A model generated the notes under the pieces. The model had not been told where the DNA came from and searched no databases. It was given only the letters and a program-made list of their open reading frames with translations. Below are positions 1,842-35,807 of a stretch of DNA of 40,410 bases, one piece after another; the stretch's first letter is position 1, and each line of letters begins with the position of its first letter. The position numbers were made by a program, and so were the translations under genes. Where the stretch lies: NCBI GenBank assembly GCA_000989305.1, contig LBTB01000002.1:1-40410 (forward strand). Reading direction: 5' to 3'. The DNA is from Candidatus Shapirobacteria bacterium GW2011_GWF2_37_20 (GTDB taxonomy: Bacteria > Patescibacteriota > Microgenomatia > UBA12405).

Positions 1842-2513
1842 ATGTTACCGATAAGTTTACAAACCTGGATTAGAGGCTATAAAATTATACTAAGCTACGA
1901 TTATATAAAAAGACGTTTAAATTATCGCTTCCTTTTTGGCATCATAAAAAAAATACATGGTGAATTAAAAAGTAAAAATACTCCTTGGCTTACCGTCGAA
2001 TCAATAAAAATAATTGAAAATTTGGCCAAAGCCTCAGATGTGGTCTTAGAATTTGGCAGTGGCTCAAGCACTGTTTGGTTTTCAAAACATGTCAAAAAAA
2101 CTATTATCATCGAACATGATCTACAGTGGTATAAAATCTCTAAAAAACTTACCAGATCAGCCGGCAGTAAAATTAAGTTACATTTAGCAGAAAGTAAAAA
2201 GAAATATTTAGAAATATTTAATAAAATTCCTGACAATTCAATTGATATCTGTTTAGTTGACGGTGAGTGGAGACGCGATTGTCTTATTGGTTCTTTTCCA
2301 AAAATTAAGACAGGTGGAGTAATAATTTTAGACAATGCCGAAACATTTATTCCCAAGTTTTGGAAAAGTAATTCATTTCAAAGCGGATGGAAAGAGAGGG
2401 GTTCACTAGAAAGGGATAAAGTAAAAACAATCATTAATGAACTTAAAAAATGGCGTTTTATTGTCACCTCAGATGTCACCCAAGACACAATTTTCTTTAT
2501 AAAAAATGCTTAA
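1842..2513 (+). CDS. Class I SAM-dependent methyltransferase-like protein
   Basis: This 223-residue protein has a Rossmann-type methyltransferase core. The SAM-binding loop is LEFGSGSST at residues 69-77, followed by an acidic strand end (IIEHD, 89-93) and a motif IV-like CLVDGEWR at 137-144. The 40-60 residues before motif I are helical and basic. It resembles methyltransferases found beside glycosyltransferases; the acceptor is unknown. It overlaps the following GT4 by 8 bases. An A8 run near 1946 lies in the coding sequence but is unremarkable in such AT-rich DNA. Confidence 0.75.
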   Translation: MLPISLQTWIRGYKIILSYDYIKRRLNYRFLFGIIKKIHGELKSKNTPWLTVESIKIIENLAKASDVVLEFGSGSSTVWFSKHVKKTIIIEHDLQWYKISKKLTRSAGSKIKLHLAESKKKYLEIFNKIPDNSIDICLVDGEWRRDCLIGSFPKIKTGGVIILDNAETFIPKFWKSNSFQSGWKERGSLERDKVKTIINELKKWRFIVTSDVTQDTIFFIKNA

Positions 2514-3612
2514 AAATATATTAACTATCACTCCATTTTTCTCACCAAATATTGGCGGTGTTGAAACTCATTTGACTGATTTAACATCCAAACTTTCTAT
2601 TCTGGGTTACCAAAATTATGTTTTAACATATTCACCTATTTCCACAACAGACGTAACCTGGCAACATTCAGAAAAAATTAATAAAAATCTACACATCAGA
2701 AGATTCTCTTGGTTTGGAAATAACTTGTTTCATCGTCTAGAAAAAAAACCCCTTTTAAACTTGATTTATATCACCCCCTACTTACTAATCCGATCAATAA
2801 TTTGGCTTATTATTCATCACCCCAAAATTGATGTCATCCACAGCCATGGCTTAAACGCCGCCATTATCGGGATATTTTTACAAAAAATCTTTCATATCAA
2901 TCGTCATATTGTCAGTATTTATTCTTCTTACGACAATGTTCCAAAAAGTAATTTATATATTTCAACAATTCTTAACCGTGTTGATGTTGTCTTAACCCAA
3001 TCACAGCGTTCAATTGATCAATTAACAAAACTAGGGGTCGATAAAAATAAAACTCATCGCTATCGTCATTGGATTGACACTGCTAAATTTAAGCCATTAA
3101 ATACCACCAGAAAAAGACCCTCCGTCTTGTTTATCGGTCGGATGATTCCACAAAAAAACGCCTTATTACTGGCTAAGGTCGCCAAAACTTTTCCCAATAT
3201 AGACTTTAATTTTGTTGGAGAAGGTCCCGATTATTCAAAAATTAAAAAATTATCTCAAGTCAACAAAAATATTATACTTCACGGCAATGTTTCTTATGAA
3301 AAACTTGCCGGCTACTACCAAAATTCAGATCTCTTTTGCTTGCCTTCCAAATACGATGAAGGTTGGGGTAGGGTATTAATGGAATCTATTGCCTGCGGAG
3401 TTCCTGTTTTGGCTACCGATATGGGAGCTGTACCTGAAGTTGTGGATAAAACTGTTTCTGTTCTGTTTACACCAAATTTAACCAATTTAAAGAAACATCT
3501 TACCAACATCCAAAGTATTATCACACTCAAAAAGAACTGTCGCTCTTACGCCTTAAAACACTTTTCTGATAAAAATATTTCTCTAATTACCCGCTTCTAT
3601 GTAAAGACCTAA
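2506..3612 (+). CDS. Glycosyltransferase family 4
   Basis: This 368-residue GT-B enzyme has the N-terminal PFFSPNIGGVETH acceptor-domain motif (about 10-22) and, in the C-terminal donor domain, FIGRMIPQKN and FNFVGEGPDY. The EX7E motif is intact in DEGWGRVLMES (E285 and E293). It would retain donor configuration and transfer a hexose from a nucleotide sugar in the cytoplasm. It is the last plus-strand gene of this unit, and its final 30 bases overlap the 3' end of the convergent methyltransferase. Donor and acceptor are not determinable here. Confidence 0.9.
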   Translation: MLKNILTITPFFSPNIGGVETHLTDLTSKLSILGYQNYVLTYSPISTTDVTWQHSEKINKNLHIRRFSWFGNNLFHRLEKKPLLNLIYITPYLLIRSIIWLIIHHPKIDVIHSHGLNAAIIGIFLQKIFHINRHIVSIYSSYDNVPKSNLYISTILNRVDVVLTQSQRSIDQLTKLGVDKNKTHRYRHWIDTAKFKPLNTTRKRPSVLFIGRMIPQKNALLLAKVAKTFPNIDFNFVGEGPDYSKIKKLSQVNKNIILHGNVSYEKLAGYYQNSDLFCLPSKYDEGWGRVLMESIACGVPVLATDMGAVPEVVDKTVSVLFTPNLTNLKKHLTNIQSIITLKKNCRSYALKHFSDKNISLITRFYVKT

Positions 3613-4194
3613 TTCCTGGTGCATTTTCAAATCAAGCCTCTTGATATCAGGACAAGCTCCAATTCCAAAACGCATTATTTTAATTTTATTAAATCCAGCA
3701 ATTTTCAATAGTTCCCTGGCCTCTTCTGCATCATACATCCATTGATGTCCTCTGATAAAAAGTTTTTTTATATTTCCTAATATGCCAACATACAGATCTT
3801 TATCAAATCCAAAATATTCACGATTAAAGCTTTCCGCGTTCTTATACTTTTTCATCATTTTTGTTAAATCTGGCAATACTATTCTAATCAAGCCTCGATC
3901 TTTTAAAACCCTTTTACATTCTCTTAATATTGTTATTGCTTCAAATTTCTCAAAGTGTTCTAAAACGTTTGAACAATAAATATAATCGACACTCTTATCT
4001 TCATCAGGGAGTCCTTTTCTTATATCCACTAATTCAATTTTTGGCCATTTCCACTTATAGTCCCGTGGTAACAGGGCCAATTTAACAAATATTGACGTTA
4101 ATTTATATTTCCCAAGTATTGGCAATAACCCCCAATCATAATTTGTCCAACCCCGACATGATGCCGGGCCACTTCCTAAATTAATTTTTCTCAT
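3583..4194 (-). CDS. Small SAM-dependent methyltransferase
   Basis: This 203-residue methyltransferase begins directly with the SAM-binding strand (INLGSGPASC, residues 4-13), a form common among methyltransferases in glycosyltransferase clusters. DIRKGLPDEDKSVDYIYCSN (57-76) and VLEHF (77-81) form motifs II-IV, and ECKRVLKDRGLIRIVLPDL follows the usual post-motif pattern. It is transcribed alone on the minus strand. It ends inside the GT4 at 2506-3612 and starts only 19 bases from the divergent GTG of the next GT4. The methyl acceptor is unknown, plausibly a glycan. Confidence 0.8.
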   Translation of the reverse strand: MRKINLGSGPASCRGWTNYDWGLLPILGKYKLTSIFVKLALLPRDYKWKWPKIELVDIRKGLPDEDKSVDYIYCSNVLEHFEKFEAITILRECKRVLKDRGLIRIVLPDLTKMMKKYKNAESFNREYFGFDKDLYVGILGNIKKLFIRGHQWMYDAEEARELLKIAGFNKIKIMRFGIGACPDIKRLDLKMHQELGLYIEAGN

Positions 4195-4201
4195 AATAAG
4201 C

Positions 4202-4208
4202 TAAAATA
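4202..4208. promoter_or_regulatory. Overlapping divergent -10 boxes (leaderless pair)
   Basis: The 19-base gap between the minus-strand ATG (4194) and the plus-strand GTG (4214) holds TAAAAT (4202-4207) read forwards, 6 bases from GTG, and TATTTT (complement of 4203-4208) read backwards, 8 bases from ATG. There is no room for separate leaders. No convincing -35 was found on either side. The inference is two leaderless mRNAs from one symmetric -10 element. Confidence 0.5.
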
Positions 4209-4213
4209 GCTAA

Positions 4214-5392
4214 GTGAAATCTAAACTGTTAATTATAGCTAATAATAACATTGGTACCGGTCAAAGTGGCGGCGACACCATCTTCCTCGAATTTATTAAA
4301 AACTGGCAAAAAAAATTAGATATAACCGTGTTTGGGGCCCAGGAAACTAAAGAATTATTAAATCGATACCACCTATCACCTAAGTTTATTCAGACTGATA
4401 AAGTTAACCAAAATTGTGACCCAACTGTTTTTAATCTCATTCGTCACACCCTGAGAAGAATCTTCTGGGGGAAGGTTGGATTTTTTACTCACCTAAAAGA
4501 TTTCAAAAATTCTCATTATTGCTATACTGTCTCTGATTTTTACCCTGATTTTATTTTAGGTCTCTTGTATAAAATAGTAAATCCAAAAGGTGTCTGGTTG
4601 TGTGGCCAATATTTATTTGCTCCATTTCCCGGATCAAAGTTTTCACCCTACGAACATCAACCTCTAAAGGGATTTTTCTATTATTTTCTTCAAATATTTT
4701 CAAGATTTTTAGCCCAACTCTTTGCCGATCAAGTATTAATCACCTCCGAGCCTGATCGTCGTCGTTTCCCCGGAAAAAGAGTTGTCATAGTTCAAGGCGG
4801 CGTTGATACTACTGAATCAGAAAAATATCTTAAATCAAATAAAATAATACCTGTAATGAGTAGAAAGTATGATGCCGTTTTTCAGGGACGTCTCCACTCC
4901 CAAAAAGGTGTATTAGAATTAATCGACATTTGGAAATTACTTATAAAACAAAAACCCCAGGCTAAATTGGCCATTATCGGCAACGGTCAACTGGAGCAAA
5001 AACTTAAATCCAAAATCAAAAAATTAAAACTGGATAAAAACATTATTCTTTTTGGGTTTCAAAGCGGACAAGGAAAATATGACATTTTTAAAGAGTCAAA
5101 GCTGGTGGTACATCCGGCGATATATGATAGTGGGGGAATGGCTGCCGCTGAAGCTATGGCCTGGGGCCTTCCTGGTGTTTCATTTGACCTGGAAGCTTTA
5201 AAAACATATTACCCAAAAGGTATGATAAAAAGTAAAAAAGGTAATTACCAGGATTTTTCGAATAACATCATAAAACTTCTTGAAAACAAAAAGTTATACC
5301 AACAAACCTCATCAGAAGCCCTGGAATTGATTAGAAATGTCTGGAACTGGTCTAAACGGGCCGACAAATTATATCAACAAATATTTAAATGA
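4214..5392 (+). CDS. Glycosyltransferase family 4 (GTG start)
   Basis: This 392-residue GT-B enzyme starts at GTG 4214, 6 bases after a TAAAAT box. N-terminal GTGQSGGDTIF fits the acceptor-domain glycine loop. The donor domain shows FQGRLHSQKGVLELID, IIGNGQLEQKL and HPAIYDSGGMAAAEAMAWGL. In this last segment the first acidic residue of the EX7E pair is Asp (D305 to E313), a DX7E variant. It is followed after 4 bases by the B12-type radical SAM gene, so the two likely act on one product. The specificity is unknown. Confidence 0.88.
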   Translation: MKSKLLIIANNNIGTGQSGGDTIFLEFIKNWQKKLDITVFGAQETKELLNRYHLSPKFIQTDKVNQNCDPTVFNLIRHTLRRIFWGKVGFFTHLKDFKNSHYCYTVSDFYPDFILGLLYKIVNPKGVWLCGQYLFAPFPGSKFSPYEHQPLKGFFYYFLQIFSRFLAQLFADQVLITSEPDRRRFPGKRVVIVQGGVDTTESEKYLKSNKIIPVMSRKYDAVFQGRLHSQKGVLELIDIWKLLIKQKPQAKLAIIGNGQLEQKLKSKIKKLKLDKNIILFGFQSGQGKYDIFKESKLVVHPAIYDSGGMAAAEAMAWGLPGVSFDLEALKTYYPKGMIKSKKGNYQDFSNNIIKLLENKKLYQQTSSEALELIRNVWNWSKRADKLYQQIFK

Positions 5393-35784: not shown

Positions 35785-35792
35785 CTCTTTGA

Positions 35793-35800
35793 AATATACT
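35793..35800. promoter_or_regulatory. Overlapping divergent -10 boxes (leaderless pair)
   Basis: In the 23-base gap, TATACT (35795-35800, plus) lies 7 bases from ATG 35808, and TATATT (complement of 35793-35798, minus) lies 8 bases from ATG 35784. A plus-strand -35-like TTAACT sits at 35772-35777 with a 17-base spacer, inside the minus-strand gene. This is the same design as at 4202. Confidence 0.55.
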
Positions 35801-35807
35801 ATAACAA

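What the first reader, a model, noticed from the sequence alone, without database searches (positions are those of the whole stretch)
4195..4213. 19-base divergent promoter with overlapping -10 boxes
Two oppositely directed start codons (ATG, minus; GTG, plus) are 19 bases apart. The gap holds TAAAAT six bases before GTG and TATTTT eight bases before ATG, overlapping by five bases. This leaves no room for leaders, ribosome sites or independent promoters. One symmetric -10 element may serve both genes, which would couple a GT4 with a methyltransferase in an either-or fashion.
Basis: partly seen in the sequence, partly recalled or inferred. Interest (0 to 1): 0.6.

Follow-up and report, generated by a model that had tools for sequence, protein, structure and literature searches.

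The report
Shared promoter between two leaderless genes
Two genes that point away from each other start only 19 bases apart and most likely share one symmetric RNA-polymerase landing site, with mRNAs that begin at or within a few bases of the start codon; this is a conserved, tidy example of a promoter type already known in bacteria, here apparently common in one lineage of small-genome bacteria.

Summary
ATG (minus, 4192-4194) and GTG (plus, 4214-4216) flank a 19-bp gap with TAAAAT (plus, 6 nt before GTG) and TATTTT (minus, 8 nt before ATG), which overlap by five bases as the 7-mer TAAAATA. No ribosome site exists on either side. The explanation is ordinary for this organism, a 0.8-Mb genome lacking ribosomal protein L30 and so probably Patescibacteria. 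Its genes are often leaderless: strong -10 boxes pile up 5-6 nt before start codons (56 in 327 genes, against 0.8 per position elsewhere). The overlap is the commonest geometry of known bidirectional promoters (start sites 18 bp apart). The methyltransferase/GT4 pair recurs in nine genomes of the family, eight with gaps of 13-23 bp. Seven of those eight have -10 boxes on both strands at leaderless spacing (1.3 expected), mostly in the 18- or 23-bp geometry although the DNA differs. Across six genomes, divergent gaps start abruptly at 17 bp. So a shared, leaderless, bidirectional core promoter is well supported for GT4 and moderately for the methyltransferase, which has a weak -10 here and a stronger candidate inside GT4. 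The proposed either-or switch is not supported; published work finds little interference at basal activity.

The parts
4195..4213 (.). 19-bp divergent intergenic gap holding the shared core promoter
   Evidence: orthologous gaps 13-23 bp in 8 of 9 genomes incl. this one
4202..4207 (+). -10 element TAAAAT of the GT4 gene; 6-nt spacer puts +1 on G4214 (first base of GTG)
   Evidence: score 8.25 against a median of 7.84 for leaderless -10 sites of this genome; the spacer of 6 is the genome's peak
4203..4208 (-). -10 element TATTTT of the methyltransferase gene; canonical +1 at about 4196 (2-nt leader) or at A4197/A4194
   Evidence: weak, score 3.33 (about the 10th percentile), spacer 8; its partner geometry is conserved in relatives
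4202..4208 (.). shared 7-mer TANNNTA: -11A of one strand pairs with -7T of the other (4203 and 4207), start sites 18 bp apart
   Evidence: sequence; geometry as in PMC10268837
3583..4194 (-). class I SAM-dependent methyltransferase, 203 aa
   Evidence: Pfam Methyltransf_11 1.2e-7; orthologues 44-67% identical
4214..5392 (+). GT4 glycosyltransferase, 392 aa, GTG start
   Evidence: Pfam Glycos_transf_1 5.6e-28; orthologues
4232..4237 (-). rival -10 for the methyltransferase: TATAAT inside the GT4 gene, 37 nt before the ATG
   Evidence: score 8.69; TANNNT kept at this place in G003, G004 and G016, absent in G028, G022, G011 and G026

Best explanation
The 19-bp gap is a bidirectional core promoter. 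One symmetric 7-mer (TAAAATA) supplies the -10 element in both directions, so RNA polymerase can bind in either orientation. Each transcript begins at or within about three bases of its start codon, so the mRNAs are leaderless and need no ribosome-binding site; the upstream promoter DNA of each gene lies in the first codons of the other. The pair belongs to a surface-glycan type cluster and is kept because leaderless genes with a shared -10 allow very compact divergent genes. Shown: sequence, geometry, genome-wide leaderless signature, conservation of the pair and its short gap. Inferred: actual start sites, use of the same 7-mer by both genes in this species, absence of a dedicated regulator.
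For: Leaderless signature: TANNNT peaks exactly 12 bases before the start codon (34 of 144 divergent genes, 28 of 154 same-strand genes with gaps over 40, against about 7 elsewhere); strong sites at spacers 5 and 6 are 20 and 36 against 0.76 per position. The GT4 site sits at the peak spacer with score 8.25. Divergent methyltransferase-GT4 pair in nine genomes, eight with gaps of 13-23 bp. Both-strand -10 at leaderless spacing in 7 of 8 gaps against 1.3 by shuffling. Geometries: 18 bp in window, G003 (minus spacer 9), G011, G026; 23 bp in G004, G028, G022; these match published preferred distances. Divergent gaps in six genomes: 4 at 1-16 bp, then 17 at 17-24 bp. E. coli control: 27 divergent pairs, smallest non-overlapping gap 38 bp (counted by hand).
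Against: The minus -10 (TATTTT, spacer 8) is weak and off the peak spacing. A better TATAAT lies 37 nt upstream inside GT4. No -35 stands out: the one TTAACA found is within chance (3 sites against 2.6). Geometries of 18 and 23 bp are also the ones that share most bases, so their recurrence alone is not independent evidence. No transcript data.
Confidence: 0.62

Rival explanations
1. GT4 uses the leaderless TAAAAT promoter in the gap, but the methyltransferase is transcribed from its own promoter inside the GT4 gene (TATAAT at 4237-4232, minus), giving a leader of about 30 nt without a Shine-Dalgarno site. The two promoters are then divergent and back to back, not shared.
For: AGCTATAAT scores 8.69, far above TATTTT at 3.33. 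Only 15% of first genes have a site of 8.2 or more within 15-150 nt upstream.
Against: The hexamer lies in the conserved LIIA codons and is lost in G028, G022, G011 and G026, whereas a -10 in the gap is kept. No enrichment of strong -10 sites at any particular longer spacer in this genome. No Shine-Dalgarno site.
Confidence: 0.27
2. The gap is an either-or switch: polymerase bound in one direction blocks the other, so the glycosyltransferase and the methyltransferase are expressed alternately.
For: The overlapping -10 elements cannot be occupied at the same time (steric argument, PMC12825309).
Against: The same paper finds no interference at basal activity in five of five E. coli promoters. 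Which side has the stronger -10 varies among relatives. No conserved operator or regulator gene was seen.
Confidence: 0.07
3. Chance: an AT-rich gap will often show TANNNT hexamers, and one or both genes are transcribed from distant promoters.
For: The genome is 62% A+T; the minus hexamer is weak.
Against: 7 of 8 orthologues and 14 of 27 short gaps against 1.3 and 2.8 by shuffling. The genes point away from each other, so neither can be read from an upstream co-directional neighbour.
Confidence: 0.04

Closest known systems
Bidirectional promoters of bacteria and archaea (Warman, Grainger and colleagues; PMC12825309, PMC10268837)
   Same: Symmetric -10 region, TANNNT on both strands, -7T and -11A reciprocally paired, implied start sites 18 bp apart; 23-bp form in some relatives.
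   Different: Here both transcripts appear leaderless, so the start codons themselves sit at the start sites and the whole intergenic region is the promoter core. Not tested by transcript mapping.
Leaderless genes with TANNNT about 7 nt upstream, as mapped in mycobacteria (PMC6448022) and reported for Deinococcus
   Same: -10 element placed so that the start site falls on or within 5 nt of the start codon; no ribosome site.
   Different: This lineage shows an extended TGN-TATAAT motif; two leaderless genes share one -10 region.
Divergent back-to-back promoters with separate -10 and -35 elements
   Same: Two divergent genes.
   Different: Separate promoters do not fit between the start codons here; they would lie inside the neighbouring genes.

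Membership tests
Bidirectional promoter (shared -10) | Overlapping -10 elements on opposite strands in a preferred geometry (start sites 18, 23 or 10 bp apart) | tested here: met
   TAAAATA at 4202-4208 gives 18 bp; relatives 18 or 23 bp
Bidirectional promoter (shared -10) | Two divergent transcripts that start on either side of the shared -10 | not testable with these tools
   no RNA data
Bidirectional promoter (shared -10) | Arrangement kept by evolution, or above chance | tested here: met
   7 of 8 against 1.3; 14 of 27 against 2.8
Leaderless gene, GT4 | -10 element at about -12 to -7 from the start codon, no Shine-Dalgarno site | tested here: met
   TAAAAT with 6-nt spacer, score 8.25, no SD
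Leaderless gene, methyltransferase | -10 element at about -12 to -7 from the start codon, no Shine-Dalgarno site | tested here: inconclusive
   TATTTT with 8-nt spacer, score 3.33; no SD; stronger rival at spacer 37
Leaderless-rich genome | Genome-wide -10 peak directly upstream of start codons | tested here: met
Either-or transcriptional switch | Raising one direction lowers the other under natural conditions | not testable with these tools
   no expression data; published basal promoters do not do this

The most novel reading that the evidence does not exclude
In this lineage of reduced-genome bacteria, leaderless transcription and shared -10 elements together set the layout of divergent genes: start codons approach to a floor of about 17 bp, which equals the 18-bp start-site geometry, and a sizeable part of divergent pairs (about 17-29 of 244) uses one polymerase site for two leaderless genes.
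Probability: 0.45. Interest if true: 0.6.

Novelty: new member of a known kind. Interest (0 to 1): 0.42.

Why it matters
Bidirectional promoters were defined from transcript maps in culturable bacteria. Here the geometry can be read from the genome, because the start codons mark the probable start sites. If right, short divergent gaps in uncultured lineages become direct predictions of bidirectional promoters, with single-base accuracy, that one 5'-end data set could test. It also shows how far a reduced genome can shrink regulatory DNA: 19 bases for two promoters and no leaders.

Tried and rejected
An operator palindrome (AGCTA-AAA-TAGCT) was considered; it is not kept in relatives, only the paired -10 boxes are. 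-35 elements: the one candidate is within chance. Ribosome-binding sites: none on either strand. Requiring the strict 7-mer with both spacers 4-9 is met in 5 of 8 orthologues (1.3 expected) but only 4 of 27 short gaps genome-wide (1.5 expected), so the general pattern is paired -10 boxes of several geometries, not one 7-mer. Leaderless literature for Patescibacteria in the held library: nothing relevant.

Full report
OBSERVATION. The minus-strand ORF 3583-4194 begins with ATG at 4194-4192, and the plus-strand ORF 4214-5392 begins with GTG at 4214. The gap is AATAAGCTAAAATAGCTAA (19 bp). TAAAAT (4202-4207) ends six bases before GTG; TATTTT on the minus strand (4208-4203) ends eight bases before ATG; they overlap by five bases in the 7-mer TAAAATA. 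The genes are a GT4-type glycosyltransferase (Glycos_transf_1, 5.6e-28) and a class I methyltransferase (Methyltransf_11, 1.2e-7). Both starts are sound: the conserved N-termini of relatives begin a few residues in, and in-frame stops lie just upstream.

ORGANISM. The window lies in a 0.81-Mb, 96% complete genome that lacks ribosomal protein L30, found in 13 of 14 control genomes. Size and L30 loss fit Patescibacteria (CPR); that link is from general knowledge, the assignment is inferred, and no name is available.

LEADERLESS GENOME. Genes were called by coding potential alone, so start calls do not use upstream sequence, in 708 kb of this genome (620 genes). Upstream of start codons TANNNT peaks exactly at -12. 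Genes with TANNNT at -12 show TGN-TATAAT-N6-ATG. Strong sites occur 20 times at spacer 5 and 36 times at spacer 6 among 327 transcription-unit-first genes, against 0.76 per position further upstream; spacers 7-10 have a smaller excess (6, 5, 3, 5). SD-like tetramers are rare (10 of 144 divergent genes), although the 16S rRNA keeps the usual anti-SD (CACCTCCTTT). By this standard the GT4 site is typical (score 8.25, spacer 6, start site on the G of GTG) and the methyltransferase site is weak (3.33, spacer 8). The latter would give a leader of 0-3 nt, still leaderless by the 5-nt criterion used for mycobacteria (PMC6448022).

BIDIRECTIONAL GEOMETRY. In the most common bidirectional promoter the start sites are 18 bp apart and -7T and -11A of the two strands pair with each other (PMC10268837); 10 and 23 bp are also common (PMC12825309). 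Here plus -11A/minus -7T is base 4203 and plus -7T/minus -11A is base 4207: the 18-bp form.

CONSERVATION. The divergent methyltransferase-GT4 pair is present in nine genomes of the family including this one. Of ten genomes with the methyltransferase, only G009 lacks the neighbouring GT4 orthologue. Gaps: 19 (this genome), 20 (G003), 20 (G004, GT4 start codon uncertain), 22 (G028), 23 (G022, TTG start), 18 (G011), 19 (G026), 13 (G016), and about 74-80 (G014). Starts were set by reading the N-termini, by hand. The gap sequences differ widely, yet TANNNT at spacers 5-8 on both strands is present in 7 of the 8 short gaps against 1.3 in dinucleotide shuffles (0 of 2000); the eighth, G003, has the 18-bp geometry with a minus spacer of 9. 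Implied start-site distance is 18 bp in G000, G003, G011 and G026, and 23 bp in G004, G028 and G022. These two geometries also share the most bases, so their recurrence by itself is expected; the excess over shuffles is the independent evidence. The side with the better -10 differs among species.

GENERALITY. In 2.3 Mb from six genomes there are 244 divergent pairs. Gap counts: 1-8 bp 3, 9-16 bp 1, 17-24 bp 17, 25-32 bp 12, 33-40 bp 14. The floor at 17 bp is what two leaderless genes with start sites 18 bp apart require. Of 27 pairs with gaps 13-30 in four genomes, 14 have -10 boxes on both strands at spacer 5-8 against 2.8 in shuffles. Two compact pairs look the same in G000 and G006 (gaps 22/22 and 29/29, with similar gap DNA). 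A second pair in the window, 35784/35808 (LPG-synthase-TM-like membrane protein and GT4), has a 23-bp gap with -10 boxes on both strands. In 200 kb of E. coli K-12, counted by hand, 27 divergent CDS pairs include one overlap and no gap between 0 and 37 bp. This control is small.

WEAK POINT. For the methyltransferase a stronger -10 (AGCTATAAT, hexamer 4237-4232 minus) lies inside GT4, 37 nt from the ATG. It falls in conserved LIIA codons and is absent in four of the seven relatives checked. I give the shared promoter 0.62 and this rival 0.27.

EITHER-OR. Two polymerases cannot bind at once, but in E. coli basal bidirectional promoters are too weak to interfere; competition needs strong activation in one direction. 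Nothing here indicates a regulator.

VERDICT. A real, conserved feature: a new member of a known kind (bidirectional promoter), in a leaderless setting. The general pattern in the lineage is the more interesting part and would need transcript 5' ends to establish.

Noticed in passing
window 35785-35807: A second compact divergent pair: 23-bp gap between a LPG-synthase-TM-like membrane protein (minus) and another GT4 (plus), with TANNNT boxes on both strands at leaderless spacing.
   Followed up: partly
window 2506-5392: The order GT4 (plus), methyltransferase (minus), GT4 (plus) recurs in relatives such as G022, G026 and G011; in the window the methyltransferase and the other GT4 overlap tail to tail by 30 bp (3583-3612), so their transcripts would be antisense at the ends.
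   Followed up: partly
L077 (G014), GT4-methyltransferase gap: In this relative the gap has grown to 74 bp or more and holds short near-repeats (TCTAGTTATCCAGTAATCTAGTAATCCAG), the only long gap among the orthologues.
   Followed up: no
G006:C3:286279: In G006 the GT4 orthologue faces a different, distantly related methyltransferase-like gene at a 24-bp gap: partner replaced, compact divergent layout kept.
   Followed up: no
G000:C10:4842 and G006:C3:329914; G000:C1:38408 and G006:C3:143441: Other compact divergent gaps look conserved in length and in part in sequence between two species of the genus (29/29 and 22/22 bp).
   Followed up: no
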